Assembly: GCF_900108295.1 (NCBI RefSeq)
Contig: NZ_FNWK01000003.1
Coordinates: forward strand, 1 to 64,000
Origin: Sphingopyxis sp. YR583
GTDB taxonomy: Bacteria > Pseudomonadota > Alphaproteobacteria > Sphingomonadales > Sphingomonadaceae
Length of the DNA stretch: 64,000 bases
Reading direction: 5' to 3'
Shown here: piece by piece, positions 541 through 26,319 of the stretch
How positions within the stretch are numbered: the stretch's first letter is position 1
Layout of the letters: each line of letters begins with the position of its first letter
Position numbers and translations under genes: made by a program
Notes under the pieces: model-generated
The model's database searches: none
Seen by the model: only the letters and a program-made list of their open reading frames with translations
What the model was told of the DNA's origin: nothing

Positions 541-774
541 TTATGAGGGGATGGCGGTCGTCAATTGCAAGGCATGAAGTTCGCCGCCCATCCGCCCGCC
601 GAGCGCCGCATATACCGCCTTGTGCTGCGCGACGCGCGTCAGGCCGCGAAAGGATTCGCTCACGACATGCGCGGAATAATGGTCGTTGTCGCCCGCAAGG
701 TCGGTGATCTGGACCTCTGCGTCGGGGAACGCCGCAACGATCATCGCCCGCAAATCATCTTCGCGCATGCCCAT
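541..774 (-). CDS. bolA: BolA family protein
   Basis: The 77-aa product has the BolA fold signature: a short helix-rich N-terminus, then DNDHYSAHVVSESFRGLTRVAQHKAVYAAL with the conserved His that ligates a bridging [2Fe-2S] cluster together with a CGFS glutaredoxin. It sits 49 nt upstream of grxD and 10 nt downstream of the DUF1476 gene on the same strand. This agrees with the well-known BolA-Grx4 partnership in Fe-S trafficking and iron homeostasis. Its length and motifs are normal for the short BolA2-like subfamily, so the family is secure while the exact physiological role is inferred. Confidence 0.95.
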   Translation of the reverse strand: MGMREDDLRAMIVAAFPDAEVQITDLAGDNDHYSAHVVSESFRGLTRVAQHKAVYAALGGRMGGELHALQLTTAIPS

Positions 775-784
775 CGAACGGCCT

Positions 785-1111
785 TCAGTTCTGGCTGTCG
801 ATGAACTGGCGGCGAGCTTCGGCCGTCTTGTCGTTCAGCACCGAACGGATTTCGGCATCGCTGATCTCGACGCTCGCCGCGGTCAGGTCGCCCGCCAGCT
901 TGCGGATGACATCCTCGTCGCCCGCTTCCTCGAAATCAGCCTGCACGACGGCCTTGGCATAGGCGTCGGTTTCTTCGGGGGTCAGCCCCATACGCTCGGC
1001 CGCCCATTCGCCGACAAGCCGGTTGCGGCGCGCCGTGATGCGGAACTGCACTTCCTGGTCGCGTGCAAATTTGGCCTCGAAGGCGCGTTCACGATCGTCG
1101 AATCCGCTCAT
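785..1111 (-). CDS. DUF1476 protein (F1-ATPase inhibitor zeta family)
   Basis: The 108-aa, highly charged, predicted all-helical protein begins MSGFDDRERAFEAKFARDQE, the hallmark N-terminus of DUF1476. The founding member is the zeta subunit of the Paracoccus denitrificans F1Fo-ATP synthase, which blocks ATP hydrolysis. The frame stays open upstream to 1249, but family alignment sets the start at the ATG at 1111. It is the first gene of the minus-strand run DUF1476-bolA-grxD. Function in this organism is by family only, since some zeta homologues inhibit weakly. Confidence 0.92.
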   Translation of the reverse strand: MSGFDDRERAFEAKFARDQEVQFRITARRNRLVGEWAAERMGLTPEETDAYAKAVVQADFEEAGDEDVIRKLAGDLTAASVEISDAEIRSVLNDKTAEARRQFIDSQN

Positions 1112-1321
1112 TTTTTCCTCGTCCGAATGGAATGTCCCCCTGCAGATAGGTTGCGCGCCCCGCTGGCGCAAGCCGCCTGTGCCGCAGATCACTTCCCTTT
1201 CGCTTACGAAGAGTTTAGGGTTTGGTCCCAAGGGAATGGGTCGCACCACAGCAATAAAGTTTCCGCCTTGCCGGCGTCACATCGGCATGGCGTCTCTACG
1301 CCTGTGTTTGGGGGATTTGTG

Positions 1322-4300: not shown

Positions 4301-4408
4301 CCCTATTATTGGGCGGGCTTCGCGATCATCGGCGACGGCGGTCAGGCGCTGCTCCACAGCGGTGCGACCGCACGAAATGGAGAGACTGCCGGCCGCGCTG
4401 CCCGCTGA
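1322..4408 (+). CDS. Exported TPR-CHAT domain protein (caspase-like)
   Basis: This 1,028-aa protein starts with a clear signal peptide (MTVRRPRLVP... cleaved near ALAQ). A cysteine-containing N-terminal domain follows, then TPR-like helical repeats (about residues 185-480) and a C-terminal CHAT domain (about 640-1020). The CHAT catalytic dyad is visible: His857 in IIHFATHG and Cys906 in VILSACDTAG. CHAT proteases are caspase-clan peptidases, usually cytoplasmic and partnered with TPRs, so an export signal is noteworthy. The reading frame extends back to 686, but only the ATG at 1322 gives a signal peptide. The cyclase gene starts 4 nt after the stop, implying co-transcription with the cyclase and the two-partner secretion genes. 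I infer a processing role on an exported client, possibly TpsA. Confidence 0.85.
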   Translation: MTVRRPRLVPILALLAFAAPGTALAQGSDPTLRDSFSIGEQGGSLCEVQATVRDNVIKGMFDRAWTIVCRDASQPVGTVRELRATSADARARIEQARSGTIICTAADACTIKGSNIAWQTRIETKGNMTYSVEGFDAYSDALNLALESIRQHRVMPGVIKVATTSVGGNDGFARTIAGTIDVDKALAEGYRRNHSGDYAEAAEFFEALSRRATEEQSAADIDPTEVTLNRALQRSNLGEFAEAERLFADVEAIPTADPVQLRLRRNFRAIHALNQRDYDGAATRLQTPIPPLTSGVTVSGDAVTLTPQIVAGVNSGDNARVIRQSNDRERLSPLERAQIIDAQATHLLGTVERLRGNAEAAKTAQLKGLNDAIAVREGRVTSIIRLRSQMLGELALAEEANGDKAAADARFLESVNLLAVEYPETNALASARARYASFLTREGQDDKAMGIYREVVTALASTQRSTAGMANMMAPYYRLLAARSATDPKAIEDFFVASQLQIRPGVADTQAVLARELSGGSSDGARLFRQATTLNRDLERARIEDARLAQLPESPEVNALRADIKGQLDNLSFQQAETVVALSAFPQYRVVASGKLDLAELQQVLRPDEAYLKMLVVGDGVYAMMIEQGKAQLWKSDIGAAGLETAVDTIRSTISVVENGRRVTYPFDAAASYKLYGQLFGPVAARLPTVPHLIFEPDGAMLRLPINLLITSDTGLAAYEQRLLDPDADPFDMRQIAWLGRTSRPSTAVSTLGFRNARQAAPSKASHQYFGLGENLPISGRLPSLGTRGAAGGSVDGDCLWDAAQWARPISAEELVTARAAMGRDAGTLLTGGAFTDTAVKNRADLGDYRIIHFATHGLVTAPRPACPARPALVTSFGGADSDGLLTFQEIFDLKIDADLVILSACDTAGAASVAATREAGLSGGGNALDGLVRSFIGAGGRSVIASHWPAPDDFDATKRLIGGLFAATEGESVADALWGTQVHLMDDQQTSHPYYWAGFAIIGDGGQALLHSGATARNGETAGRAAR

Positions 4409-4412
4409 TCCG

Positions 4413-6503
4413 ATGAACGCACCCGAAGCCATCATTCCCGCGGCGGACGCAACCGCGCCGGACGGCCAGCGCGCCGGAGTTCCATTGGGCAAGCGCGTCC
4501 GGCGGTTGGTCATGCAGCTCGGTCCGTCGCGGATGGCGGCGACGCTCGCCTTTCTCCTGATCGCGATCCTCGTTGCGCGCTTCAGCTGGCAGATGCCGCT
4601 GATCGATGCCGCCGAACGCGCGCTCTATGACGCGCGCGCGATGCTGATGGCCCCGCATGTCGAACAGGACAAGCGCATCACCCTCGTCACCTATAACGAC
4701 GAAACCCTGTTCAATACCGGCATCCGCTCGCCGCTCGACCGCACCCTGCTCGCCAATGCGCTCGGCAACCTCGACCAGATGGGCGCGAAGGCGATCGGGA
4801 TCGATATCGCGTTCGATTCGCCGCGTCCTGACGACGATCTGCTGAAGGCGCAGCTCCGCGCGATGAAGACCCCGACGTGGCTCGCCTATGCCGAACAGGC
4901 GAGCAATCCGAACACGATCTTTTTCGAGCAGCAGAAATTCCTCGAAGGCTTCATCGGCGAGGTGACGACCGACAAGACCAGGCCGACGAGCGTCTTGTTC
5001 CGCACCGATGACGACAGCGTGATCCGCAACTGGCCCGACCGGCCCAAGAATCTGCCCCCGCTGATGTCGAACGCGCTCGCGCCGATCGATACCGCGCACG
5101 CGAATTTTCAGGGTAATATCCGCTTCCTCGTCCCCGCCCGCGCCGCCGCGGGCCAGGAGGAACCGGTCTTCGCCAACATCCCGATCGACACCTTCGCGAT
5201 GCCCATGGATGCCGAAATGCGCGCGGGCTTCGCCGAATTAGTGAAGGGGCGCTATATCCTGATCGGCGGCGACATCATCGACAACGACCAGTTCAACACG
5301 CCGCTGAGCCGCTTTCCCGACGCGATTACCGGTCAGCATGAAACGATGATCGGGCTCGAGGTTCATGCGCATATGCTGGCGCAGCAACTCGACAAGGCAT
5401 GGACCCGGCCGATCCCCGGCCCCGCGCTGTGGGGGCTCGCGGTGCTGATCGTCCTCGCGGGCGGACTCACCAGCCTGATCGACCTACGCGCGCGCTGGGT
5501 GGCGCTCGCCTTCCTCGGGCAGATGGCCTTCTTCATCGCTTTCCCCTTCTGGCTGCAGGGTCGCGGCGTCGACACGACAACGCTCCCTACCTTCGGCTGG
5601 GCGGTCGGCTGGCTGTTCGGTTACGCCGCCGTGGGCACCGCCGCGCGCACCGTCGGCTCGCGACAGCGCGCCTTCGCGCAGTCGGCGCTCGGCAAATATC
5701 TGCCCGCCGACATCGCGGCGCAGATCATGCGCGATCCCGACCAGCTTTCGCTGCATGGCGAGCGGCGCAACATCTTTTGCGTCTTTACCGACCTCGAAGG
5801 CTTTACGAAGCTCAGCCACGCGGTGACGCCGGAAACCGTGGCGCGGCTGCTCAACGAATATCTCGATCGCCTGTCGGACATCGTGCTCGCCCATGGCGGG
5901 ACGATCGACAAATTCGTCGGCGACGCGATCGTCGCCTTCTGGGGCGCCCCGATCAGCCGGCCCGACGACGGCGAACAGGCGGCCGCCGCAGCACTTGCCA
6001 TGTATCAGGCGGGCGAGAAATATCGCGTCGACCTGGCTGCCGAGGATGTGCCGCCGATCGGCATGACGCGCGTCGGGCTTCATGTCGGCGACGCGATCGT
6101 CGGCAATTTCGGCGGCGAAGGCCGCATCCAATATACCGCGCTCGGCGACAGCATGAACACCGCCTCACGGCTCGAGGCGGCAAACAAGGGCCTCAAGACC
6201 GGGGTGCTGGTGTCCGCCGAAGCGGCCGCGCGGTCGCGCCGCGACGATCTGGTGCCGATGGGCCGCGTCACGCTGCGCGGCCGGGCGCAGCCGGTCGATG
6301 TCTTCACGCCGCGCCCGGACCTCGCGCCCGACCAGCGGGACCGCATCGCCGCGCTGGTCACCGCCCACGCGGCGGGCGACAAAAAAACCTATGTGACCTG
6401 TGCCACAGCAATACAGGGCGATTTCGGTCAGGATCCAGCCATCATGTTTCTGATAGAACGCCTGAACGAGACCAAAGAGGGAGAAAGCTATGTCCTTTCC
6501 TGA
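4413..6503 (+). CDS. CHASE2-domain adenylate/guanylate cyclase
   Basis: This membrane-bound class III nucleotide cyclase has about 696 aa. A transmembrane helix near residues 30-50 is followed by an extracytoplasmic CHASE2 sensor (about 55-330), three close membrane helices (about 335-415) and a cytoplasmic cyclase domain (about 445-620). Metal-binding Asp460 (FTDLEGFT) and Asp504 (FVGDAIVAFWG), substrate-specifying Lys500 and the NTASRLEA segment are all present, so the enzyme should be active; the Lys favours ATP. The start is uncertain: an ATG at 4377 overlaps the CHAT gene, while the ATG at 4413 lies just after its stop. The 3' end overlaps the next gene by 14 nt. CHASE2 sensors commonly neighbour CHAT proteins. 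Confidence 0.9.
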   Translation: MNAPEAIIPAADATAPDGQRAGVPLGKRVRRLVMQLGPSRMAATLAFLLIAILVARFSWQMPLIDAAERALYDARAMLMAPHVEQDKRITLVTYNDETLFNTGIRSPLDRTLLANALGNLDQMGAKAIGIDIAFDSPRPDDDLLKAQLRAMKTPTWLAYAEQASNPNTIFFEQQKFLEGFIGEVTTDKTRPTSVLFRTDDDSVIRNWPDRPKNLPPLMSNALAPIDTAHANFQGNIRFLVPARAAAGQEEPVFANIPIDTFAMPMDAEMRAGFAELVKGRYILIGGDIIDNDQFNTPLSRFPDAITGQHETMIGLEVHAHMLAQQLDKAWTRPIPGPALWGLAVLIVLAGGLTSLIDLRARWVALAFLGQMAFFIAFPFWLQGRGVDTTTLPTFGWAVGWLFGYAAVGTAARTVGSRQRAFAQSALGKYLPADIAAQIMRDPDQLSLHGERRNIFCVFTDLEGFTKLSHAVTPETVARLLNEYLDRLSDIVLAHGGTIDKFVGDAIVAFWGAPISRPDDGEQAAAAALAMYQAGEKYRVDLAAEDVPPIGMTRVGLHVGDAIVGNFGGEGRIQYTALGDSMNTASRLEAANKGLKTGVLVSAEAAARSRRDDLVPMGRVTLRGRAQPVDVFTPRPDLAPDQRDRIAALVTAHAAGDKKTYVTCATAIQGDFGQDPAIMFLIERLNETKEGESYVLS

Positions 6504-7248
6504 TTTCCGGATGCGCCGCCTCGGCCTCACCGCCGCTGCCGCCATCGCCGCCGTCGCCATGGTGGGCACCGCCGCCGCGCAATCGATGGTCGTCCGCTCG
6601 ACCGGCCCGTCGGCGAGCAAATATCCTGCCGGTGCCAAGCTTAAATCCTCCGACAAGCTGACGCTGGTTGCCGGCGACCGGATCATCTTGATGCAGGCAG
6701 GCAAAACGCGCACGCTGTCCGGCCCCGGCACCTTTGGCGCCACCGGCACGGTGCAGGCGAGCCAGTCGCTTGGCGGCAACGTCACGCGCATGCTCGCCAA
6801 GGGGCCGACGATGCGGTCGCGCGGCGGATTTTCGCGCGGACCGGGAGAGGAAGCGCCCGCCAATGTCCGGGCGCCGAACCTGTGGCTGCTCGACTATCGC
6901 GAGGGCGGCACCTTCTGCGTCCTCGATCCGTCGGTCCTGATGCTGTGGCGCCCGAACATGGAAGGCGACACCGCGCTCGAAATCGAAAGCGCGGGCAAGA
7001 AAGCCACCGTTGCGATCGTCGATGGCGCGAATTTCCGCAAATGGCCGACCGATGTGCTGCCGGTGCAATATGGCACCGACTATCGTTTGTCGGGCGGCGG
7101 TCTCGCCAAGCCGGTGACGGTGCGTTTCGCCGCCGTCGAAAACGCACCCGACACGGCCGAAGGGTCGATCGACATGCTGATGGGCAAGGGCTGCTCGCCG
7201 CAGCTCAACCGCCTTGTCGATACGATGTCGGAAGCCGAAGCCGGATGA
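6490..7248 (+). CDS. Small exported protein of unknown function in the CHAT/cyclase operon
   Basis: The 252-aa product has a signal peptide (hydrophobic run about 11-30, cleaved after TAAAQ). Residues about 40-85, with KLTLVAGDRIILMQAG and LSGPGTF, loosely resemble the beta-rich FecR-type periplasmic fold. Cys codons occur in GTFCVLD and GKGCSPQ near the C-terminus and could form a disulfide. It overlaps the cyclase stop by 14 nt, so the two are probably translationally coupled. A hairpin at 7256-7287 follows the stop. I do not recognise a characterised homologue. Its position suggests a periplasmic accessory or sensor partner for the CHASE2 cyclase or the CHAT protein, which is inference. 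Confidence 0.75.
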   Translation: MSFPDFRMRRLGLTAAAAIAAVAMVGTAAAQSMVVRSTGPSASKYPAGAKLKSSDKLTLVAGDRIILMQAGKTRTLSGPGTFGATGTVQASQSLGGNVTRMLAKGPTMRSRGGFSRGPGEEAPANVRAPNLWLLDYREGGTFCVLDPSVLMLWRPNMEGDTALEIESAGKKATVAIVDGANFRKWPTDVLPVQYGTDYRLSGGGLAKPVTVRFAAVENAPDTAEGSIDMLMGKGCSPQLNRLVDTMSEAEAG

Positions 7249-9255: not shown

Positions 9256-9283
9256 CATGACCTTTCCATCGAGGACAACCGCC

Positions 9284-12200: not shown

Positions 12201-15200
12201 CAACGATCAACATCTCGGCCAATGGCTATGGCGGCAACGGCGCCGCCGACCGCAGCCTCGGAACCGGGGGCGTCGCCACCTTCCAACAGACCGGCGGCAC
12301 GATCAACGTCGGCGATCTGGTCGTCAGCGCCGACGGCTTCGGCGGCGTGGTACAGGGCCAGTCGGGCGCCGGCATCGGCGGCACCGCAACCATCGACCTG
12401 CTCGGCGGCACGATCACCGCGGCCGACATCGTCGCGACCGCCGACGGCGAAGGCGGCGAGGGTTCGTTCGGCTCCGACGACGATCCGATGAATATCGTCC
12501 CCGGCGGCATCGGCGGCATCGGCCGCGGCGGCACCGCGACGATCAATATCGAAGGCGCCGCGGTCGTCGGCGCAAGCGTCATCGAAGCACGCGCAGCGGG
12601 CACCGGCGGCAATGGCGGCGAATTCTTCAACTTCTCGAGCTTCGGCGGCACCCCGGGCACGCCCGGCGCCGGCGGCGACGGGATCGGCGGCGACGCGACG
12701 GTGAACGTCCGCGGCGGCACGACGACGGCCAGCGGCATGGTCGCCAATGCGTCGGGATTGGGCGGCACCGGCGGCAACAGCTTCTTCTCGAGCAGCAGCG
12801 GCGCCGCGACCGGCATCGGCGTCGGCGGGGACGGCGGCGCGGGCCGCGGCGGGACCGCCACGATCGCTCTCGAAACGCCGATCCCCGGGGTCGGGATCGC
12901 GAACAGCATCGCGCTTGGTACCGGCGGTACGGGCGGCACCCATAATGTCGGCGGCAATGGCGGCGACGGCGTCGGCGGTATCGCGCAAGCGATCGTCACC
13001 GGCTTCGACGCCGGCGAACTCGCCGTGACGCTCGATTCGACCGGAACCGGCGGCAATGGCGCGAACGGGCGCGACGGCAACGGCGGCAATGGCGGCAATG
13101 GCACGGGTGGCAGTTCGCGCATGACGGCCGATGGCGCGGGCGCGAGCCTGACCGCGCTGGAAAGCAATTTCGTTTCCGGCGGCACGGGCGGCAATGGCGG
13201 CGCGGGCGGCCTCGCCTTTGCCGCGGCCCCGGCGGTTGCTCCCTCCGGCGGCAATGGCGGCAACGGCCAGGGCGGCGCGGTCGAAATCGTCGCCAACGAG
13301 GGCGGCACCGTCACGCTCGGCTTCCTCAGCGGCGGCAGCATCATTCTCGACAGCGTCGGCCGCGGCGGCATCGGCGGCGGCGGGGCCAATGGCGGCTTCT
13401 TCGGCAATTCGACCGGCGGCGACGGCGGCAATGGCGGCGCGGGCACCGGCGGCACCGTATCTTTGCAGGCCAACGGCGGCACGATCACTTCGAACGGCGA
13501 GGCCGTCGACATCACCGTCAACGGCATATTGGGCGAGACGGGTATCGGCGGCTCGGGCACCGGCACCGGCGGCAATGGTGCGAACGGCGCCTTCAGCGGA
13601 ACCACCGGCGGCCGCGTCGTGATCGAGACGACGGCGGGCGCCTCCGGGCCCGGTCAGATCGATCTCGGCCTTACCAGCATCGCCGCGAACGGCGACACCG
13701 CCGGCCGCATCGAAATTCGATCGGGCGGCGACATTTCCTTCGCCGGGCTTGACGCACAGGCGCTCGGCACCGCCGCACCGACCAACAACAACACCGATCA
13801 GGCGCTCGCGGGAATCTTCATCGCGCCGACGGGCGGCACGATCTCCAGCCAGGGTGACGTCACGCTGACCACCGACGGTTCGGTCGGCATCTATGCGCAG
13901 TCGGACGGCATCCTCGATGTCGATGGCGCGCTGACGATCACTGCGGGCGACCAGATCGACATTCGTCACGACGTCCGCGAAGGCACAGCCGCCACTCTGG
14001 GTGCAAATGGCAGCCTGATCCTGTCGGCAGCGACCAGCATCAGCGCCGCGCCGGGCAGCCTGATCGGCGCGGGCGACCTGCTTTCGCTCAGCGCGACCGG
14101 CCCGACGGCCACGATCGGCGTCGACCGTCTGGCCGGCGGCAACATCGTCATCAGCAGCGCGGGCGCAGCGAGCGTCGAACATGCCGAAGCGGTGGGCGAC
14201 TTCACCGCGACGACGGGCAGCTTCCGCACCGGGCTGAATTCGATCATCACCGGCGGCAATATCTCGATCGCCTCGCCCGGCGCCGTCGATCTCGGCAATT
14301 CGACCGCGGGCGGTTTCGTTCAGGTCAGCGGCCAGTCGATCGTCTTCAACAATATCGATGCCGGCGAACGCATAAGCCTGTCGGCCGAAGGAACGGCAAC
14401 CGGTGCAGAAGGGATCCGCGGCGGATCTCTCAGCGCGGGCGACGACATAAATCTCTTTGCGAACAGCGTGGCGCTCACCGGCACGGTCACGGGCGACGCA
14501 TCCTTCTTCGCCTTTGGCACGGGCGGCACTGTTTCGGTGAACAATGCCGACGTCGACGGGACGATCTCGATCTTCTCGGAAGGAGACATGACCGGAACCT
14601 ATATCGCCGGCGGCGATATCTTCCTGAATTCGGATGCGAATATCAATGTGTCGGCAAGGGCCAATGGCGGCTATGTCGATGCCAATGGCGTTGCGACGCA
14701 GGGCAATCTGTTCGTCGATGCGATCGGCAACGCCGCGCTGACCGACAGCTCGGCCGGACGGATGTTCGGCGTCAACAGCGGGGGCGCGGCGACGATCACC
14801 AATGGCGCCGCCGGCGAAGACCTGCTGGTGCGGGCGGGAACGACCGCCAGCCTGACCGACGTCACGGCGGGCGACGACCTGACGGTTACGGCGGTCGGCA
14901 ACATCTTCGCCAACAATGCCAGCACGACGGGCCTCGGAAACGACACCCATATTCTAGCCTATTCGGTCGGATCGTCCAGCGGTGTGTTCACGATCGGCGT
15001 CGGCGAAGGCACGGCAGGCACCAACGGCGCCGATATCGTGATGGCCTCGTCGGCCGGCGCGATCGACGCGGCGGCGCTGTCGGCGGGCGACGATATCTTG
15101 CTGAATGCCGCCAACAATATCGCGGTCAACGGCGCGACGACGCTCGGCCTCGGCACAACTGCCGGCGACAGCAGCATTCGCACGCAAGGCGGTGCGACGA

Positions 15201-17050
15201 CGCTGTCCGGTATCGACAGCTTCAGCGACGTTATCGTCGATGCGACGGGCGCCGCCAATCTCACCGGCCCGGTTGCGGCGGGACGCGATGTCGCGATCAC
15301 CGCTGCATCGGTCAGTCTCGCGACGCTCACCGGCCCGGGCGGTGCGGTCGATACGCTGACCGCCGACGGCAATATCGCGGTCAATTCGGCCGCGGGCATC
15401 GTCGGCGGCGGGACGCAGGCCTTTGGCGACCTGACGATGACCGCGGGAACCGCCATCGACGTCACCCATGCCGGCGGCGGGACGAACGTCGTGCTGAGCG
15501 GGGCAAGCGGTATCGACGCCGACACCGTATCGTCGTCGGGAACGACCAGCCTCGACAGCACGGCTGGCGAAATCCGGATCGGCAGCCTCAATTCCAGCGG
15601 CACGATCGACGCCAGGGCCAATGCGATCCGCATCGAAGGCGGCGGCAACATGCACTTCACGTCGCTGAACGCAGCGACCGGCGGCGCCTATGTCCGCGGC
15701 AATGGCGATTTCTCGGTCGACAATGGCAGCGTCGCCGGAACCGCCGACTTCGCCACCAGCGGCGAGGCGATGAACATCATCGCGCTGACCGCCGCCAACG
15801 CGAATATCGCGAACAGCGGCGGCTTCCTTACGCTGAATTCGGTCAGCGTGACGGGCGATCTGGCCGCTTCGGCACGGTCGAACCTGGCCGTCACCGGCGT
15901 CGTGACCGGCCAGTCGATCTCGCTCGAATCGGCCGACATCGCGATCGGATCGGCGGGCCGCGTCGGCACGGCGGGCGTCACCCAGCAGCTGTCGATCGCG
16001 AACAATGATGACGGCAGCCAGACGTTCATCGGCGGCACGGCGAGCTCTACCGGCCCCAACGGCTATCATATCGACGCCGACGAGCTGACACGCGTTTTCG
16101 GCACACAGATCGAAGTCTTCGCACCCAAGGTTCAGGCCGCGGGCGGGCTCTCGGTCGGATCGTCCGCACCGCCCGACGTCGTGGTCGATACATTCACCAT
16201 GACCGGCGGCGCGTCGAACTCCAACCTCGGCGCCAATGGCGCGCTGACGATCAGCACCCCGGGCAAGATGCGCGTGATCGGCAATGTCCAGCTCACCGGG
16301 CTCACCGATACCAATGGATTGAACCTGATCGCAGACGAGGCGATCGAGGTCATCCTCGGTCAAGGGACCGTCCGCCTCACCGGCGCGAGCAATGCCCCGG
16401 GCGGTCAGCTCACCATGGAATCGGACGACATCATCGTCGCGACGCCGGCCGCGATCGCCGCGGTCGGTGCCGCAACGTCGATCGACGCGATCAACGCCCG
16501 GCTGGGCGAAAATGACGGCGTCGTGCTCGACGAAGGAGCGCTCTTCGCGCGTGGTATCCGCGCCAATGTGTCCGGCGGCTTCTATGTCCAGAACAGCGGC
16601 GCGGGAACCGACCTCGCCTTGCGCCGCGGGCTGACATTCGGCGCCGGCGGCCTCGATGTGGTCGCGCAGGGACAGCCGCGCATCGTCGTCAATGGCGTCC
16701 AGCTTGGCGCCAACGGGCAGGTGACCGGCCTCGAAGCGCTTCAGCTTCTGACGATCAACGGCGCGGCGCCGGTGGTCGGCACCTATGATCGCCGGTCGAC
16801 CTTCAACGGCTGCTTTATCGCCAGCCCGACGGCGTGCACCACGGTCGCGATCGATTTCGAGAATAATTTCCCGGTTCAGGATATTATCGACGAAGAGGTC
16901 GACGACGACGATGCCGTCGGCAAAGGCAATAATTTCCCGCAGGCGCTGATCACGATGCGCGACATCGACCCGATGACCGGCGAGCCGCTGCTCGACGATC
17001 CGGTGACCGGCGCGGGCAATGACGATTTGTGGACGCCGCCGCAGCAATAA
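9284..17050 (+). CDS. Giant TpsA exoprotein with filamentous haemagglutinin N-terminal domain
   Basis: This is an about 2,588-aa secreted adhesin-like protein. After a signal peptide (cleaved near PALAQ), residues about 30-170 form the TPS/haemagglutination domain: NVTQAQSIINWVP, GGNIWFYNAGGILIGATGVIN and LVLTSNNI match the beta-helix cap recognised by TpsB. The rest is beta-helix-like short Gly/Thr/Ala/Ser repeats, with an extreme glycine-rich block in the middle. The C-terminus is acidic, with the only obvious Cys pair (NGCFIASPTACTT) about 80 residues from the end. ATG 9257 is possible, but GAGGA at 9271-9275 is well placed for ATG 9284. Substrate or target cannot be read from sequence. 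Confidence 0.88.
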   Translation: MRANANPSPLRNGKQRLMTSCAIAAGMAALAYGGPALAQVAANPIFVDVGAGTGVNNVGNQTNVNVTQAQSIINWVPTDTAPTGGAIDILPDGSIWNFSGSGDYTVLNRFTSGSGGSLSRQIALNGTVNSVNTAASGARGGNIWFYNAGGILIGATGVINVGSLVLTSNNIITTGGLFGPTGEIRFDGAAGSTSAITVNGSINTNNGINAGNSYVALVAPRIVQAGTVRTDGSVAYVAAEAVDIRINSGLFDINVTRGAEGGNVITHTGTTTGPAHQQGDTDQSRIYMVAIPKNDAVTMLVSGAIGYDDALSAQVDPDGAVRLSAGYNITNGEHNLAPANATAANIVVNDTLFRSNTAAHASGTFRGEALQQLPGSPPPLSSAGRIFVEGNAVFSGDAGATLTVGTGQQGGATGNLTVRSDGAIGAAGSAAVVVSGGTLTTGNLLQITSLAQPATATGDSQGGTASLTVTGGSVISQTIAVSAIAAAEIGTNGTAGTARGGDASISVRNAGSLLSATAVTISASAFGPTNIAVPTGGNAQGGNATLTVADGASFRATSNVSLDANGSGGFGPVQAGNGTGGTGRIEILGANTLFDTLDTSIAVRGNGGSFSGPDTTLNGGDGTGGSAAVVINSGTGAALSLGALSLDASGRGGEASGENSVGGDALGGTASLTADGGATAQFTSIALAASAEAGGALSPGGTTARAGSARGNQVTLSATNGSTINSSGTVGLSATGAVVAGENYGSGTGGNVNISATAGGSVTSSNRFNVDASGGNYSNAIGQSAGNGVGGGVEFLADGGTIRAEVYEVNVSSNTINVSGTGGSAQGGTVDLYANNGGQITATLDATNVFDASARTGISAAGTNATGGTIQLIANAGSINMPVGTILAAGGVSGGATAAGSDISVGSGGTILVRTVADALNSSAISLGDFEASAEGRTRVDEESAPGLPRETSGRGDGGSIDFDIQGGTLNAATINISANGYGGNGAADRSLGTGGVATFQQTGGTINVGDLVVSADGFGGVVQGQSGAGIGGTATIDLLGGTITAADIVATADGEGGEGSFGSDDDPMNIVPGGIGGIGRGGTATINIEGAAVVGASVIEARAAGTGGNGGEFFNFSSFGGTPGTPGAGGDGIGGDATVNVRGGTTTASGMVANASGLGGTGGNSFFSSSSGAATGIGVGGDGGAGRGGTATIALETPIPGVGIANSIALGTGGTGGTHNVGGNGGDGVGGIAQAIVTGFDAGELAVTLDSTGTGGNGANGRDGNGGNGGNGTGGSSRMTADGAGASLTALESNFVSGGTGGNGGAGGLAFAAAPAVAPSGGNGGNGQGGAVEIVANEGGTVTLGFLSGGSIILDSVGRGGIGGGGANGGFFGNSTGGDGGNGGAGTGGTVSLQANGGTITSNGEAVDITVNGILGETGIGGSGTGTGGNGANGAFSGTTGGRVVIETTAGASGPGQIDLGLTSIAANGDTAGRIEIRSGGDISFAGLDAQALGTAAPTNNNTDQALAGIFIAPTGGTISSQGDVTLTTDGSVGIYAQSDGILDVDGALTITAGDQIDIRHDVREGTAATLGANGSLILSAATSISAAPGSLIGAGDLLSLSATGPTATIGVDRLAGGNIVISSAGAASVEHAEAVGDFTATTGSFRTGLNSIITGGNISIASPGAVDLGNSTAGGFVQVSGQSIVFNNIDAGERISLSAEGTATGAEGIRGGSLSAGDDINLFANSVALTGTVTGDASFFAFGTGGTVSVNNADVDGTISIFSEGDMTGTYIAGGDIFLNSDANINVSARANGGYVDANGVATQGNLFVDAIGNAALTDSSAGRMFGVNSGGAATITNGAAGEDLLVRAGTTASLTDVTAGDDLTVTAVGNIFANNASTTGLGNDTHILAYSVGSSSGVFTIGVGEGTAGTNGADIVMASSAGAIDAAALSAGDDILLNAANNIAVNGATTLGLGTTAGDSSIRTQGGATTLSGIDSFSDVIVDATGAANLTGPVAAGRDVAITAASVSLATLTGPGGAVDTLTADGNIAVNSAAGIVGGGTQAFGDLTMTAGTAIDVTHAGGGTNVVLSGASGIDADTVSSSGTTSLDSTAGEIRIGSLNSSGTIDARANAIRIEGGGNMHFTSLNAATGGAYVRGNGDFSVDNGSVAGTADFATSGEAMNIIALTAANANIANSGGFLTLNSVSVTGDLAASARSNLAVTGVVTGQSISLESADIAIGSAGRVGTAGVTQQLSIANNDDGSQTFIGGTASSTGPNGYHIDADELTRVFGTQIEVFAPKVQAAGGLSVGSSAPPDVVVDTFTMTGGASNSNLGANGALTISTPGKMRVIGNVQLTGLTDTNGLNLIADEAIEVILGQGTVRLTGASNAPGGQLTMESDDIIVATPAAIAAVGAATSIDAINARLGENDGVVLDEGALFARGIRANVSGGFYVQNSGAGTDLALRRGLTFGAGGLDVVAQGQPRIVVNGVQLGANGQVTGLEALQLLTINGAAPVVGTYDRRSTFNGCFIASPTACTTVAIDFENNFPVQDIIDEEVDDDDAVGKGNNFPQALITMRDIDPMTGEPLLDDPVTGAGNDDLWTPPQQ
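12598..13620 (+). repeat. PGRS-like glycine-rich repeat block inside tpsA
   Basis: About 340 codons are dominated by imperfect GGNGG, GGTGG and GGDGG units, written mostly with GGC codons and recurring ggcggcaatggcgg motifs. Short non-glycine inserts separate the glycine runs. The pattern resembles PGRS-type sequence and should form a polyglycine-II or beta-helical sheet. It is a likely hotspot for slippage or recombination length change between strains. Confidence 0.75.
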
Positions 17051-20765: not shown

Positions 20766-21031
20766 AGGGCCTGAACCTGTCCATTACGCGTTCGAGGCGT
20801 TGAAATGGCGAAGATGTTGGGTTTGGGTAGCCGTCGCGGGTAGCATCGCTACCCGCAAGGATGGACAAGCCCAAGATCGAAGCCATTTCGACGTCCCTTC
20901 GGGATTTGACCGATTTTGTCCATGGCGGCGTCAGCGTGTCTTGGAATATGTTCATATGCCTTTGCCCCGCTTCCTAGCCCTGAACAAAATCGCTTCAAAC
21001 CTCGAGCGCGTAATGGACAGGTTCAGGCCCT
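20766..21031. repeat. Nested palindromic (MITE-like) element
   Basis: Outer arms 20766-20797 and 21000-21031 are inverted complements over 32 nt with one mismatch. Inside, 20798-20825 pairs imperfectly with about 20863-20892, and within that a perfect 9-bp hairpin with a 3-nt loop occupies 20836-20856. A further 9-bp inverted pair joins 20911-20919 and 20984-20992. No ORF is credible here and no target-site duplication is obvious. It fills the whole gap between the phosphodiesterase and cytochrome genes. It could be a mobile non-autonomous repeat or a structured RNA or terminator region. Confidence 0.7.
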
Positions 21032-21057: not shown

Positions 21058-22992
21058 CTATCCGCCCCGCCTTGCCGCGGGCAAGGAAGGTGTGCGCCAC
21101 GTCACTTCGTAAAGGCCCCGCCCCCCGGTTCCTGTGATCATGCTCACACTATAGGTATCACCCAAGGGTTTATTTGTGATTGCCGCGGTATTTTTCTTGC
21201 GCTGGCGCGGCGGCATCCACGGTTTGCCGTCATCCGAATGATATTCGTGACACATTGCGCAGGGTGATTCGGTCGCGGTTTCAACCTTCACCACGCGCGC
21301 ACCGCCCTCGCCGACATGGCAGTCGCGGCATTGGCGCAGCCCCGGCACGAGCAAGTCGGTCGAGGCTTTCGACGCCGGCGCGGCGGTATGGCAATCGGCG
21401 CAGGCGGTTTCCTTGTGCGCATCATGGTCGAACCAGCCCTTTTGCAGGTAGCGCGGCGTCTGGCTCACCGCCGCGACGCGCCAGCTATTTCCGGCCTGCA
21501 GCGCAAAGATCGTGTGGCAGTCGTAACAGGCGCCGCCCTTTGAAAAGACCGCGCGCACCGCATCCTGCGCCCGCGACGGCCGCGTCGCGACTTCGTTGAA
21601 ATAGATATTATAGACCTGCCCTTCGGCATAGGCACCGGGCCGCCGCCGCTGCATTCCGCCCAGTTGGAGCGGCCGCGCGGGCGGCGCCGAGCGATAATAG
21701 GCCGTGAGGTCCGCAACCACCTGATCGGGCTCGCCATGACGCAAGGTCCGCGTCACCCCGCCCACCGTCTCGAACGCAAGGCTGTGGCACATCGCGCAGT
21801 CGCGCTCCATCTCGACCGGCTTGACGCGCACCCCGTCGGCCTCGACCCGGTGACAATTTTCGCATTCAAGCTTCTTGCCGAAATCATAGCGTCCGCGGAA
21901 ACTCGCCGCCATGCGCGCAACCCCGCCGGTCGCCTGCAGATGCATGTCGTGCGGGAATTTGAGGCCGTTGTAATCGACCACCCCCTTCGCCAGCGTCGTG
22001 CGCACCAGCTTGCCGCCCGGTGCCGGACGCACGAGTGGGCGGAACTCAGGATGCCTCGTGCCGAAATCCGCGGCATCGGCAAGCGCCGTAGGATGCCCGG
22101 CAGTCTTCAGCCGCGCCGACATGCCGTCGTGACAATCGGCGCAGAATTTCTGCGGCGTCGCCGGCATCGGGCCCGAACCTTCATGCTCGGTATGGCATTC
22201 GACACAGCGGCCCTGCGGCTTGTTGAAGGTCTTCGCAAAGCCGTCGAGAATGCGCTCGCCGACGCCCGGCGGGTGCCGTGCGGCGAGCAGCATCGCGGTC
22301 GGAGCATTGGCGTGCGCCATGCTCATCGCCTTGTGCTCGCCGGTGTGACAGCCGACGCACGCCTTGTCGGTCACCGCGACGAACGGTTCGACATGGCACG
22401 ACTGGCAGTCGTTCTTCAGGCTGGCATGCGCGCTCGACAAGGGCCCCGAAAGCCACGCGCTGTCGGCATGATATCCGTCGGGGCGCTCGTTGACATTCTT
22501 GTAGCTGTACCACGCCCAGATCGGCCCGATCAGGAAGGCGAGCAGCATCAGTACGCCGAACACCCAAGCGCCCATGCGCTTGCCGAGCATCACGCCCTGC
22601 AGCGAAAAGGCCTTCGCCTCGTCGACATCCTTCGACGATTGCGACAGTTCGTCGATCCGCTCGACGAGCAGGATGATCTTATCATCCTCGCGCGCAATCG
22701 TCAGCCGGTGGCCGCCAAAGCGCAGCTCGCCGCCCGCCGCGCTGTCGATGTCGGCCGCGGTCTCGGTGCGGCCATTGAGGTCGAACCCCAGCCCTTCCTG
22801 CGCAGCGACGCGCACCGTGCGCCCGTCGCTGCTGCTGATCGTCGCATGATGCGGATTCACCGCCAGATCGGCGACATGGATCGTATTACCGGCATCGCGG
22901 CCAAGCGTGATGATATCGCCCGGCAGCGCGGCATCGCGGATGATCTGCTTGCCGGTTTTGGTCGTCGAGATCCGACGCAGGATGAAGCTCAT
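21058..22992 (-). CDS. FHA domain-membrane anchor-decaheme cytochrome c fusion
   Basis: The 644-aa protein has three parts. Residues about 25-100 look like a degenerate FHA domain (LGRDAGNTIHVADLAVNPHHATI). One transmembrane helix spans about 141-164. A periplasmic domain follows with ten CxxCH heme sites: CQSCH (196-200), CVGCH, CVECH, CADCH, CENCH, CAMCH, CYDCH, CADCH, CRDCH and CAMCH. Topology is therefore cytoplasmic FHA and periplasmic multiheme. It should pass electrons to or from the upstream-encoded b-type membrane protein and flavoprotein, while the FHA domain could bind a phosphothreonine partner. It begins 10 nt after the stop of the membrane protein gene. I know of no characterised protein with this layout. 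Confidence 0.88.
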   Translation of the reverse strand: MSFILRRISTTKTGKQIIRDAALPGDIITLGRDAGNTIHVADLAVNPHHATISSSDGRTVRVAAQEGLGFDLNGRTETAADIDSAAGGELRFGGHRLTIAREDDKIILLVERIDELSQSSKDVDEAKAFSLQGVMLGKRMGAWVFGVLMLLAFLIGPIWAWYSYKNVNERPDGYHADSAWLSGPLSSAHASLKNDCQSCHVEPFVAVTDKACVGCHTGEHKAMSMAHANAPTAMLLAARHPPGVGERILDGFAKTFNKPQGRCVECHTEHEGSGPMPATPQKFCADCHDGMSARLKTAGHPTALADAADFGTRHPEFRPLVRPAPGGKLVRTTLAKGVVDYNGLKFPHDMHLQATGGVARMAASFRGRYDFGKKLECENCHRVEADGVRVKPVEMERDCAMCHSLAFETVGGVTRTLRHGEPDQVVADLTAYYRSAPPARPLQLGGMQRRRPGAYAEGQVYNIYFNEVATRPSRAQDAVRAVFSKGGACYDCHTIFALQAGNSWRVAAVSQTPRYLQKGWFDHDAHKETACADCHTAAPASKASTDLLVPGLRQCRDCHVGEGGARVVKVETATESPCAMCHEYHSDDGKPWMPPRQRKKNTAAITNKPLGDTYSVSMITGTGGRGLYEVTWRTPSLPAARRGG

Positions 22993-23002
22993 CGTCCCCG
23001 CC

Positions 23003-23884
23003 TCACCAGTAGAAGAAGACGCTGATGATATGCGCTGACAGCGCCGCGATCAGCGCAAAGGTCAGCGGCACATGCACATAGAGCCAGATTTCGAGCAGCG
23101 CGCGAATCTTGAGATGCTGGCGCAGCCTCGCAAGCGCCGCCTCCTTCTGCTTGAGCAGCCCCACCACCTTTTCGCGCGCCTCGGTATCGCTGCTGCGCGA
23201 CAAGGTGAGCGTGCGAAGCGCGGCGCTGGTCGCACAATTCGGATAGCGGCCCGACACGCGCGCCACGATCCCGCCCGCGAATGGATCCTCGTCGAGCGCC
23301 GCGAGCACCGGCGCGGTATCATCGGGCGTCAGCGGCTGCGCAGCGGTATGAAGCTGGCGGTCGAAGGCGCGGATCGCCTCGAGCATCTGCATCTGCGTCA
23401 TCTGCTCGCGATTGTTCGACAGCGCCTGTGGCAAGGTCGCATAGACGATCACGCCATAGAGCCCCGACAGGATCACGAGCATCATCAGCGCCCAGGCGAG
23501 CGTATGCACGTTCCAGCCAAGCTGGAATCCCGTATGCCAGGTGCCGACGACGATCAGGCTGAGCCCCAGATAGACATGCGCCGAGGTCCATGCCTTCAAC
23601 GACCAGTGATCGCTCGTCATCTTGCGCTTGCGATAGCCGAGTGCGGTCAGCCACAGGATCAGCACAGCACCGATCGTGCCGAGTGTATAACCGTACCAGC
23701 TGCCGCCATTATGCCGCGGCGTCACGTCGATCAGCGCATAACTCACGATGATCAGCAGGCAGAGCCCGCCGGAAATCTTCGCCCAGCGGAAACCGGCATA
23801 GCGCAGGAAGCCCTCGTGCCGACGCTCGCGGACGCGCTCGGTCTGGGTCGCCTTGACGCGACCGCGCTTGAACAGGCTCGCCAT
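23003..23884 (-). CDS. Membrane b-type cytochrome-like protein
   Basis: The 293-aa protein has about five transmembrane helices: near residues 34-52, 66-84, 99-118, 123-144 and the last 30 residues. A soluble cytoplasmic-looking insert lies between the fourth and fifth. Histidines sit in helices in the manner of bis-His b-heme ligands (SAHVYLGL, GTWHTGF, NVHTLAW, YVHVPLTF, SAHIISVF). It likely relays electrons between the cytoplasmic ferredoxin-flavoprotein and the periplasmic decaheme cytochrome, or to quinone. The frame runs back to 24181, but the ATG at 23884 overlaps the upstream stop as TGATG, indicating coupled translation. Heme binding is inferred, not proven. Confidence 0.8.
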   Translation of the reverse strand: MASLFKRGRVKATQTERVRERRHEGFLRYAGFRWAKISGGLCLLIIVSYALIDVTPRHNGGSWYGYTLGTIGAVLILWLTALGYRKRKMTSDHWSLKAWTSAHVYLGLSLIVVGTWHTGFQLGWNVHTLAWALMMLVILSGLYGVIVYATLPQALSNNREQMTQMQMLEAIRAFDRQLHTAAQPLTPDDTAPVLAALDEDPFAGGIVARVSGRYPNCATSAALRTLTLSRSSDTEAREKVVGLLKQKEAALARLRQHLKIRALLEIWLYVHVPLTFALIAALSAHIISVFFYW

Positions 23885-26319
23885 CAGTCGGTATCCTCGT
23901 CGAGCCGCGCGATCGACAGGAACTCCTCCGGCGAGACGCGGATCGCGGCGCCGGTTGGGCAAGCGCGAACGCAGGCGGGACCGCCGGAAATGCCTTTGCA
24001 CATGTCGCATTTGACCGCGATCTTCTTGGGCTTCTCCTCGCCCAATTGTTTCTTGGTCCATTTGGGCGACGGCTCGCCCGGCCCCGGCCCGAAGCCGGTG
24101 AGCAGCCAGCGCAGCAGGCTCGGCTTCTCGGGCGGTGCCGCCTCCATGCGGATCACCCCATAGGGGCAGTTGCGCATGCAATTGCCGCAGCCGATGCAGC
24201 CCGGCTCCATGAACACCTCGCCGTCGGGACCGCGATGGATCACGTTCGGCGGGCAGTCGGCCATGCAGTGCGGATGTTCGCAGTGGCGGCAGCTTGTCGG
24301 AACGTGGAGATGCGCGAAGGTCTTGCCCGCCTCGCGGTCGAGCCGCGACAGGCCCTCATGACTGTCGGCGCACGCCTTCTCGCAATTGTCGCAGCCGACG
24401 CACAGATTTTCGTCGATGAGCAGCGCGTCGGTCGCCTCGCCCAGCCCTTCCTTCATGATGAAGCTCGCGGTGTCCGAATAGAGGTCGACCGCGCTCGAAT
24501 AGGTCGCTTTCCGCGATTCGATGAAGCTGTTCATCTGCGCGCGTTCGGCGACAGCGGCCTCGGTCGCCTCGCGCACCTGCGGCCGCGCCGCCAGCATCTT
24601 GCGGAAACTCTCGCCGGTCAGCTTGATCACCTCGCTGCCGACCGCCGCCTTCACCGTGGCATTTCTGGGTTGCCCGCTGAGGACGCCCATTTCGCCGAAG
24701 AAGCTGCCCGCGGGCAGGTAGCGGAGGAAGATCGGCTTGCCGCCGATATCCTTCTCGACCACCATCGACCCCGACCGGATGACATAGACATCGTCGCCCT
24801 GCTCGCCCTCGGTCAACACGACCTTGCCTGCCGAAATGCGTTCGACCTCGGCGGTGTCGACGACGGGGCCGAGATCGTCGACCGTCAAGCCGCCCTTGAA
24901 GATCTGGAGCAGCTGGCGTTCGAGCGAGATACGGTTGATCGCGCGTTTCGCGCCGGGCACCGAGGCCATCAGCTTGAGTGCCGCCGTGCGCGACACCTCG
25001 ACGAAAATCCCGTCGGCACCCGCGCGGATCGTCGCGCCGCGCTTGCGGCCCGAAATCAGGCCGACCTCGCCAAAGATCGATCCCTGCTCGATCGGTACGG
25101 TGAAGTCGGGGCCGACCTCGACCTCGGCAAAGCCGTCGGCGATTGCGAACAGCGACGATCCGGGGTCGCCCTTCTCGAACACCACGTCGCCCTTGCGATA
25201 AAAGGCGACCTTCGAATCGAGCATGAATTCCCGCATCTGCAGCGGCGATACGTCGGCGAAGATGCTGACCCGCGTGCGCAGATATTCGAGCCACTCGCTG
25301 ACCGACTTTTTCTCCGGCAGATCGGCAAAGATCGCCGCGAGGTCCTTTTCGTCGGCGGGCGTCAGGTCGCTATTGCCGTTGATGAACTCGACGACATCAT
25401 AGCCCTGGTTCATGCAATGCTTGATCAGCGGATAGCCGGCGAGCGCGCCGATCACGAAGATGCCGGGCACCGTCGATTCAAAGGTCGGCGACAGCTTCGG
25501 AAAGGCCTCGCGATCCGGCCCCGTGAACTCGATCCCCATCGATTCGACGAACCCGCGCGGCGCAACCGATCCCAGACGCGCGACGATCACATCGCACGCG
25601 ATCTTCACATCGCCGTCGGGGGTTTCGAGCGTCAGCCAGCCGGGCTCGACCGTCTTCGGCTGCGTCTCGGTGCGGATACTCATCAGGCCGTTCTCGCCCG
25701 CCTCCATCATGTCGGAGACATTTTTGGCCTTGGCGCGCGCGAAATCCTTCGAACGGTTGAGGATGGTGACGGTATTCTCGAGCGCTTCCTCGGCAACGCC
25801 GAGCGCATTTTCGATCCCCGCGTCGCCCGACCCGACGACGGTGATATGCTTGTCCTTGAAATCCTCGGGATCGTCGACCTGATAGATGATGTGCGGCAGG
25901 TCGGCGCCTTCGCAGCGCATCCGGTTCGGATTGCCCTGCGTCCCGATCGCCAGCACGATATTCTCGGCATGAAAGACATCGCCCTTGGCGGTCTTGATCG
26001 CGAAGGCGCCCTTCTGGCCGGTGACCTCGGTGACGTCGGCGTGTTTGACGACATTCACCTTGTTGTTCGCGGCATCCTCGTCCCAATTGCCGAGGATATA
26101 TTCGCGCGCACCCTCGGCGAAACGGCAATCGGAACGCAGGTCGAGCCGCTCGGGCGTCGCAAGGACGCGCTTGCCCTTCTGATATTTGAAGATCGTGTCC
26201 GACAGATGGTCAGTCTTTTCGAGCAGGACATGGCTGAGCCCGAGCTGCCCGGCGCGTGACGCGGCGCTGAGCCCGGCCGGCCCCGAACCGATAATCGCGA
26301 CCTTGACCGGATCGCTCAT
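23884..26319 (-). CDS. FAD/NAD(P) oxidoreductase-double cNMP-binding-ferredoxin fusion
   Basis: The 811-aa protein has an FAD motif IIGSGPAGLSAA (about residue 10), an NAD(P) motif VVGSGDAGIENA, and the closing FAD segment VIGALAGYPLIKHCMNQG. Two CRP-like cyclic-nucleotide domains follow (about 350-470 and 480-600), each with a phosphate-binding cassette (FGEVGLISGRKRGAT and FGEMGVLSGQPRNAT) keeping the key Arg. From about residue 637 come four cysteine groups for [4Fe-4S] clusters, starting CVGCDNCEKAC. It should pass NAD(P)H electrons through FAD to the clusters under cyclic-nucleotide control. No thioredoxin-reductase CxxC is present. The ATG at 26319 is chosen because it overlaps a short upstream ORF as ATGA. 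Confidence 0.9.
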   Translation of the reverse strand: MSDPVKVAIIGSGPAGLSAASRAGQLGLSHVLLEKTDHLSDTIFKYQKGKRVLATPERLDLRSDCRFAEGAREYILGNWDEDAANNKVNVVKHADVTEVTGQKGAFAIKTAKGDVFHAENIVLAIGTQGNPNRMRCEGADLPHIIYQVDDPEDFKDKHITVVGSGDAGIENALGVAEEALENTVTILNRSKDFARAKAKNVSDMMEAGENGLMSIRTETQPKTVEPGWLTLETPDGDVKIACDVIVARLGSVAPRGFVESMGIEFTGPDREAFPKLSPTFESTVPGIFVIGALAGYPLIKHCMNQGYDVVEFINGNSDLTPADEKDLAAIFADLPEKKSVSEWLEYLRTRVSIFADVSPLQMREFMLDSKVAFYRKGDVVFEKGDPGSSLFAIADGFAEVEVGPDFTVPIEQGSIFGEVGLISGRKRGATIRAGADGIFVEVSRTAALKLMASVPGAKRAINRISLERQLLQIFKGGLTVDDLGPVVDTAEVERISAGKVVLTEGEQGDDVYVIRSGSMVVEKDIGGKPIFLRYLPAGSFFGEMGVLSGQPRNATVKAAVGSEVIKLTGESFRKMLAARPQVREATEAAVAERAQMNSFIESRKATYSSAVDLYSDTASFIMKEGLGEATDALLIDENLCVGCDNCEKACADSHEGLSRLDREAGKTFAHLHVPTSCRHCEHPHCMADCPPNVIHRGPDGEVFMEPGCIGCGNCMRNCPYGVIRMEAAPPEKPSLLRWLLTGFGPGPGEPSPKWTKKQLGEEKPKKIAVKCDMCKGISGGPACVRACPTGAAIRVSPEEFLSIARLDEDTD

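What the first reader, a model, noticed from the sequence alone, without database searches (positions are those of the whole stretch)
23884..26319. Flavoprotein fused to two cyclic-nucleotide domains and a four-cluster ferredoxin
One polypeptide carries FAD and NAD(P) motifs, two CRP-type cNMP pockets with intact cassettes, and four groups of Fe-S cysteines, and it lacks a thioredoxin-reductase CxxC. It looks like a ligand-gated electron input module, in which cAMP or cGMP would directly regulate electron transfer rather than transcription.
Basis: partly seen in the sequence, partly recalled or inferred. Interest (0 to 1): 0.75.

Follow-up and report, generated by a model that had tools for sequence, protein, structure and literature searches.

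The report
Possible cAMP-gated bacterial electron exporter
An unstudied bacterial gene set appears to let the signal molecule cAMP switch the flow of electrons from inside the cell, across the membrane, to a ten-heme wire outside it, instead of switching genes.

Summary
Window 23884-26319 is one 811-residue minus-strand gene: TrxR/Bdr-like flavoprotein without CxxC, two cyclic-nucleotide domains with intact cassettes, then a four-cluster ferredoxin. It is no artefact: relatives occur in 36 of 385 genomes of its class, and all 16 Fe-S cysteines are invariant in 123 of 123 aligned sequences. The flavin-CNB pair was catalogued in 2007 ('Bact_Pyrredox', Kannan et al.). New here is the context. The gene overlaps a membrane protein with invariant histidine pairs (probable diheme cytochrome b), followed by a decaheme cytochrome and, in sphingomonads, a phosphodiesterase of the cyclic-nucleotide class (70 of 72 loci with room). 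Flavoprotein and membrane protein are naturally fused in Magnetococcales. All 92 carriers examined have a class III cyclase, against 12 of 97 non-carriers of the same family; 26 of that family's 52 carriers have one within 40 kb, as here. In two of three carriers fully read it is the only protein with canonical cAMP cassettes. Best reading: a cAMP-controlled NAD(P)H-to-periplasm electron conduit. No ligand, flavin, heme or activity has been measured; direction, terminal acceptor and the phosphodiesterase's substrate isomer are unknown.

The parts
23884..26319 (-). A: 811-aa FAD/NAD(P) oxidoreductase + two cNMP domains + four-cluster ferredoxin
   Evidence: homologues
25360..26319 (-). A residues 1-320: TrxR/Bdr-like FAD-NAD(P) module without CxxC; NR..F.RAK motif (R189 118/123, K197 121/123)
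24964..25203 (-). cNMP domain 1; cassette GEVGLISGRKRGATIRA with E418 and R427 invariant
24589..24843 (-). cNMP domain 2; cassette GEMGVLSGQPRNATVKA with E543 (122/123) and R552 (123/123)
23926..24420 (-). A residues 634-798: HycB-like ferredoxin, 16 invariant Cys = four [4Fe-4S] sites
   Evidence: (formate hydrogenlyase subunit 2, residues 634-798)
23003..23884 (-). B: 293-aa membrane protein, probable diheme cytochrome b (H103, H117, H127, H271, H285 invariant in 107/107); start overlaps stop of A by one base (TGATG)
   Evidence: PF01292 below cut-off; three hydrophobic segments by a simple scan; no PDB relative by profile
21058..22992 (-). C: 644 aa, FHA-like N-terminus, one hydrophobic segment, ten CxxCH hemes
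   Evidence: ten CxxCH in 90 of 91 complete frames; FHA above cut-off only in distant relatives L150 and L149
19898..20749 (-). PDE: 283-aa class III metallophosphoesterase (Rv0805/Icc/SpdA-like), downstream of C
4362..6503 (+). CHASE2 sensor - class III adenylate/guanylate cyclase, about 18 kb from A
6490..7248 (+). 252-aa gene behind the cyclase; a relative lies beside the cyclase in 9 of 13 genomes fetched for linkage; function unknown

Best explanation
A-B-C encode a transmembrane electron conduit whose cytoplasmic entry is controlled by cAMP. SHOWN by sequence: domain content, invariant cofactor residues, the operon, a natural A-B fusion, a PDE gene behind the operon in sphingomonads, and co-inheritance with class III cyclases. 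INFERRED: NAD(P)H (probably NADPH) reduces the FAD of A; electrons cross its four [4Fe-4S] clusters to two b hemes in B and on to the ten hemes of C, whose heme domain is periplasmic and whose FHA-like domain is cytoplasmic and may dock A. cAMP binding to the two cNMP domains, which sit between flavin and ferredoxin, changes their relative position and opens or closes the flavin-to-cluster step. The CHASE2 cyclase sets cAMP from an external signal and the PDE resets it. The acceptor beyond C is unknown.
For: Cofactor residues and cassettes kept down to about 43% identity. B found next to A in 79 of the 80 kept loci; the exception, L085, ends at the contig edge. A-B in one chain in three distinct proteins of 1110-1136 aa, two named Magnetococcales/Magnetococcus. 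Ten CxxCH in 90 of 91 complete C frames, nine in the other. PDE 16-313 bp behind C on the same strand in 70 of 72 of those loci with C and room; in two genomes whose C has room but no PDE behind it (G771: L216, L154; G808: L159, L160) a PDE lies beside a cyclase instead. Cyclase PF00211: 52/52 carriers vs 12/97 non-carriers in the family (Fisher p=7e-29), 36/36 vs 213/349 in the class, 7/7 further carriers. In 5 of 6 genera where both states were seen, the cyclase is missing with A. Cyclase within 40 kb of A in 26/52 carriers, 2.7 expected at random. In G145 and G244 A alone has canonical cassettes.
Against: No measurement of ligand, flavin, heme or activity. B scores below the PF01292 cut-off (23.0 vs 30.1) and has no solved relative. 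B was not found beside A in L026, L038 and L039 of 29 further class loci. The PDE scores best against SpdA, which hydrolyses 2',3'- and not 3',5'-cAMP (PMC4222275 abstract), though below that model's cut-off. PDE found in none of 16 distant-family loci with C and room. No cyclase within 40 kb in 26 of 52 carriers. Carrier G742 has another protein (617-aa frame) with a canonical cassette, and the window's genome a CRP-like one. The phosphopeptide Ser of C's FHA is not conserved. The ferredoxin is weak in both models. Fisher p ignores shared ancestry.
Confidence: 0.6

Rival explanations
1. Same conduit, opposite flow: electrons enter from periplasmic donors through C and B and reduce NAD(P)+ in A, as reverse electron input in lithotrophs, with cAMP as the switch.
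For: Some relatives are named Gallionella, Sideroxydans and Magnetococcales; that several of these oxidise iron or sulfur is recalled.
Against: Uphill transfer to NAD(P)+ needs energy coupling that nothing in A-B-C obviously supplies; the sphingomonad carriers are, from recall, mostly aerobic heterotrophs (the 80 kept are the best matches, so this is a biased sample).
Confidence: 0.12
2. The cNMP domains are structural or bind another ligand; the cyclase and PDE association reflects shared ecology or neighbourhood, so the conduit is not cAMP-gated.
For: CNB-fold domains can bind heme or other ligands (CooA, CprK: Kannan 2007, passages); the PDE may be 2',3'-specific; none of 16 distant loci with room showed the PDE.
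Against: Both cassettes keep Glu and Arg in at least 122 of 123 sequences; 92 of 92 carriers have a cyclase; in two of three carriers fully read A is the only canonical receptor candidate.
Confidence: 0.2
3. A is a soluble disulfide reductase or ferredoxin-NADP reductase of the Bdr/TrxR type with extra sensor domains.
For: Best structural match is Bdr/YpdA; some sources name it thioredoxin reductase.
Against: CxxC in 0 of 120 listed relatives; Bdr's cysteine column is Ala/Gly in 118 of 123 and Cys in 4 (role of that Cys recalled); score 126.9 vs cut-off 339.9; recurrent membrane partners.
Confidence: 0.05

Closest known systems
Bact_Pyrredox CNB family (Kannan et al. 2007, PMC2246266; passages seen)
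   Same: N-terminal pyridine-nucleotide oxidoreductase plus tandem CNB domains; printed cassette GEMGLISGRRRGATVRA matches this protein's first cassette at 14 of 17 positions
   Different: the main text has 0 hits for ferredoxin, Fe-S or 4Fe-4S; in the passages seen there is one table row and a general remark on NADH production
HycB-type ferredoxin subunits (formate hydrogenlyase) and AegA/YgfT
   Same: four-cluster ferredoxin; that AegA also joins it to a flavin module is recalled
   Different: far under AegA/YgfT cut-offs (71.1 vs 1003; 52.3 vs 1154); no cNMP domains there (recalled)
Bdr/YpdA and thioredoxin reductase
   Different: active-site cysteines absent
CymA/MtrA-type export conduits
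   Same: works like them: electrons carried over the membrane to multiheme c (inferred)
   Different: C is far under the DmsE-type decaheme cut-off (19.6 vs 192.2); entry is NAD(P)H-flavoprotein, not quinol (inferred)
Ca-gated NADPH oxidases such as NOX5 (recalled)
   Same: works like: a second messenger gates transmembrane electron flow from NADPH
   Different: unrelated parts; messenger would be cAMP
S. meliloti CyaD1/SpdA and CyaC systems (PMC4222275, PMC10463352; abstracts only)
   Same: alphaproteobacterial cyclase with class III PDE at the same locus; CyaC responds to quinone redox state
   Different: output there is the transcription factor Clr

Membership tests
Bact_Pyrredox CNB family | N-terminal pyridine nucleotide oxidoreductase followed by tandem CNB domains | tested here: met
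   description
Bact_Pyrredox CNB family | cassette consensus GEMGLISGRRRGATVRA | tested here: met
   14 of 17 positions identical in CNB1
Canonical cNMP-binding domain | cassette Glu and Arg in both domains | tested here: met
   123/123, 123/123, 122/123, 123/123
Canonical cNMP-binding domain | binds cAMP or cGMP | not testable with these tools
   needs purified protein
Thioredoxin reductase | redox-active CxxC | tested here: not met
Bdr/YpdA | single active Cys in the FAD GxGPC motif (recalled); model cut-off | tested here: not met
   Ala here; Cys in 4 of 123; 126.9 vs 339.9 bits
HycB-like four-cluster ferredoxin | four groups of four cysteines | tested here: met
   123 of 123
Cytochrome b561/Ni-hydrogenase cytochrome b (PF01292) | curated score cut-off | tested here: not met
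   23.0 vs 30.1 bits
Cytochrome b561/Ni-hydrogenase cytochrome b (PF01292) | paired histidines about 14 apart (recalled criterion) | tested here: met
   H103/H117 and H271/H285 invariant in 107/107
DmsE/MtrA-type decaheme cytochromes | TIGR03508 cut-off | tested here: not met
   19.6 vs 192.2
Phosphothreonine-binding FHA | conserved Gly-Arg, Ser and His (recalled criterion) | tested here: not met
   GR 92/92 and His49 84/92 kept, but the Ser position is mostly N31 E20 D9 A8 T6 of 92
3',5'-cAMP phosphodiesterase CpdA (NF008359) | curated cut-off | tested here: not met
   75.4 vs 225
SpdA 2',3'-cNMP phosphodiesterase (NF050112) | curated cut-off | tested here: not met
   134.6 vs 400
Calcineurin-like (class III) metallophosphoesterase | PF00149 cut-off | tested here: met
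   64.4 vs 21.5
CHASE2 class III cyclase | PF05226 and PF00211 cut-offs | tested here: met
   89.9 vs 26.3 and 62.7 vs 21.9

The most novel reading that the evidence does not exclude
A complete second-messenger circuit built around a redox machine: a CHASE2 sensor cyclase makes cAMP, a PDE removes it, and the main cAMP receptor in some of these bacteria is not a transcription factor but the flavin-ferredoxin entrance of a transmembrane electron conduit ending in a decaheme cytochrome, so that an outside signal sets electron export directly.
Probability: 0.45. Interest if true: 0.9.

Novelty: new variant of a known kind. Interest (0 to 1): 0.72.

Why it matters
cAMP in bacteria is known mainly through transcription factors. 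If A is gated by cAMP, an outside signal could change electron flow across the membrane at once, without gene expression, in a protein family found across several classes of Proteobacteria. It would give a function to a family listed since 2007, suggest what class III cyclases do in sphingomonads that show no other canonical receptor, and offer a genetically encoded switch for electron export. The prediction is directly testable with one purified protein and a few deletion mutants.

Tried and rejected
Assembly or annotation artefact: rejected, the domain order recurs in dozens of genomes. Thioredoxin reductase or Bdr: rejected on cysteines. Phosphothreonine input through FHA: weakened, Ser not conserved. 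HbpS-like neighbour as the acceptor: HbpS-like proteins lie near C in 8 distant loci; none among the 7 window frames; not searched in other sphingomonads, so left open. Known iron-oxidation electron-transfer cluster: the Fe(II)-oxidiser survey PMC5566968 has 0 hits for cyclic nucleotide, CRP, FHA, thioredoxin reductase and 4Fe-4S (passages only). Magnetospirillum paper PMC5459824 (passages only) lists a cNMP-domain gene responding to iron and oxygen; its architecture is not given in the passages. Neighbour clustering in 47 loci (those of L061-L119 over 15 kb) found A, B and C in 47, the PDE in 45, a large opposite-strand gene in 29 and weaker clusters such as a 143-aa frame upstream in 23; shadow frames were not separated. 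The crude gene caller printed no A in L142 and L143 and missed B in several loci where tblastn finds it. The structure job on the natural A-B fusion gave mean pLDDT 76 and pTM 0.54, with ferredoxin and A-B junction mostly at or under 60, so no interface is claimed. VIA rows mainly cover the flavin module, so the other domains rest on sequence only. Literature: ten listing searches (the last was aimed at SpdA) showed no title on this operon; five papers were opened, none read whole; only open-licence PMC texts are held. Genome counts use E<=1e-60 and a first-look filter, so weaker relatives are missed. The within-genus contrasts are the six I saw; 77 non-carriers were unlisted and not checked for more.
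Full report

IS IT REAL AND CONSERVED. The window is from Sphingopyxis or a very near relative (names). At E<=1e-60 the protein occurs in 36 of 385 genomes of its class, 15 of 398 of its phylum and 52 of 149 of its family; the samples overlap. In 123 aligned sequences (the window's own and the 122 loci then held, possibly some from the same genomes) the 16 cysteines are invariant, and the cassette Glu and Arg of the two cNMP domains are kept in 123, 123, 122 and 123. Further relatives are named Gallionella, Sideroxydans, Rhodocyclaceae, Gammaproteobacteria and Magnetococcales.

THE OPERON. The stop of A overlaps the start of B by one base (TGATG), and C starts 10 bases after B. B (293 aa) has three hydrophobic segments by a simple scan (relatives two to five, where the scan called them) and five histidines invariant in 107 of 107 aligned sequences: 103, 117, 127, 271 and 285. 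Two pairs 14 apart are what a diheme four-helix cytochrome b needs (recalled), but B is below the PF01292 cut-off and has no solved relative by profile, so 'cytochrome b' is inference. C has an FHA-like start, one hydrophobic segment and ten CxxCH motifs; of 101 C matches in 113 loci, 91 frames are complete, 90 with ten CxxCH and one (L150) with nine. Among the 80 kept loci, mostly sphingomonads by title, 79 show B and 76 show C; L085 lacks B, and L072, L085, L087 and L099 lack C, all where the contig ends. In 29 further class loci B is missing in L026, L038 and L039, so the partners are not universal: around L038 (longer stretch L146) other multiheme genes lie beside A. Three proteins of 1110-1136 residues, two named Magnetococcales or Magnetococcus, end in a B-like part after A in one chain, which argues that A and B form one complex. 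P0125 is a tandem double of the flavin-cNMP part with one ferredoxin at the end.

THE cAMP LINK. Behind C lies a 283-aa metallophosphoesterase related to Rv0805 and Icc. Of the 80 kept loci, 76 have a C match; 72 of these have more than 1 kb behind it, and in 70 the phosphodiesterase follows on the same strand 16-313 bases away by match ends; L078 and L108 lack it. In 16 distant-family loci with C and room none was found with this query. In two genomes whose C has room but no phosphodiesterase behind it (G771, stretch L216; G808, stretch L159) one lies beside a cyclase instead, on the same strand (L154, L160). A class III cyclase with a CHASE2 sensor lies at 4362-6503, about 18 kb from A. In 13 genomes fetched because a cyclase was near A, its match is found in all 13; in 9 with the 252-aa neighbour too, in the others often over the catalytic part only.

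CO-OCCURRENCE. In the 149 family genomes, 64 have a PF00211 cyclase; all 52 carriers do, against 12 of 97 non-carriers (Fisher p 7e-29). In the 385 class genomes it is 36 of 36 against 213 of 349 (p 1e-7). Seven further carriers all have one. That is 92 of 92 distinct carriers. Shared ancestry inflates these p-values; in six genera where I saw both states, the non-carrier lacks the cyclase in five (G325, G517, G608, G775, G777) and keeps it in one (G871). In 26 of 52 carriers a cyclase lies within 40 kb of A, where about 2.7 would be expected at random; the other 26 have none so near on the same contig.

IS A THE cAMP RECEPTOR. Of 12 genomes searched for cNMP domains I read all matches in seven. 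In carriers G145 and G244 only the two domains of A have a canonical cassette (nearest misses lack the Arg). In the window's own genome A shares this with one CRP-like protein of 242 aa. Of four non-carriers, G325, G517 and G777 have none; G608 has one borderline case (GELAVFAGKPRIVDAVS). The other five, all carriers, were not read fully; in them I saw one further canonical cassette (G742, 617-aa frame) and one borderline (G786, 520-aa frame), so A is not the only candidate everywhere.

MECHANISM. The simplest circuit is: external signal, CHASE2 cyclase, cAMP, cNMP domains of A, change in the flavin-to-ferredoxin step, electrons through B to the decaheme C, reset by the phosphodiesterase. The position of the cNMP pair between flavin and ferredoxin fits a hinge. 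What is beyond C, which way electrons flow, and whether cAMP opens or closes the path are open. The cyclase keeps the Lys typical of ATP users and a Thr at the second position (recalled rule), so cAMP is more likely than cGMP. The main caution is the phosphodiesterase: its best model is SpdA, whose namesake at a S. meliloti cyclase locus cleaves 2',3'- and not 3',5'-cAMP (abstract); both SpdA and CpdA cut-offs are missed. A precedent for redox-linked cAMP signalling is S. meliloti CyaC, which responds to quinone redox state (abstract).

WHAT IS KNOWN. Kannan et al. 2007 list 'Bact_Pyrredox', tandem CNB domains behind a pyridine-nucleotide oxidoreductase, with cassette GEMGLISGRRRGATVRA, and remark that NADH production may involve CNB functions (passages). 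Its main text has no hit for ferredoxin or 4Fe-4S, and the passages I saw name no partner genes. Ten listing searches of the open-licence library showed no title on the operon. I therefore call it a new variant of a known kind: the protein class was catalogued, the circuit was not found described.

VERDICT. Observation confirmed; interpretation partly supported and extended. Confidence 0.6 in a cAMP-controlled conduit, interest 0.72.

Noticed in passing
window 20766-21031: A 266-bp element with 32-bp terminal inverted repeats (97% complementary), single-copy in its genome, lies between C and the phosphodiesterase; 20 of the 21 loci L040-L060 have only 44-86 bp there by match ends, L057 has 313.
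   Followed up: partly
window 686-4408 (+): CHAT-domain (caspase-like) gene of 1240 aa whose frame overlaps the start of the CHASE2 cyclase frame; in L134 a caspase-domain gene and a trypsin-like gene lie upstream of A.
   Followed up: no
window 9257-17050 (+): Frame of 2597 aa without any Pfam match; a large opposite-strand frame recurs beyond the PDE in 29 of 47 loci, not shown to be the same gene.
   Followed up: no
L133, L134, L135, L136, L137, L138, L140, L149: Near C in these distant relatives lies a protein of about 500-770 aa with HbpS-like (PF03928) matches, a possible redox partner.
   Followed up: partly
L152 469-3747 (-): A FIST-domain class III cyclase lies about 1.7 kb from one of two copies of A, on the opposite strand with an amine-oxidase-like frame between, in another class of Proteobacteria (G385).
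   Followed up: partly
P0125: Natural double: flavin-cNMP-cNMP twice, then one ferredoxin.
   Followed up: no
L146 3532-4848 and 7566-11555 (-): Other neighbours of A: a four-heme protein on one side and a 1329-aa ten-heme protein with a weak LVIVD-repeat match on the other.
   Followed up: no
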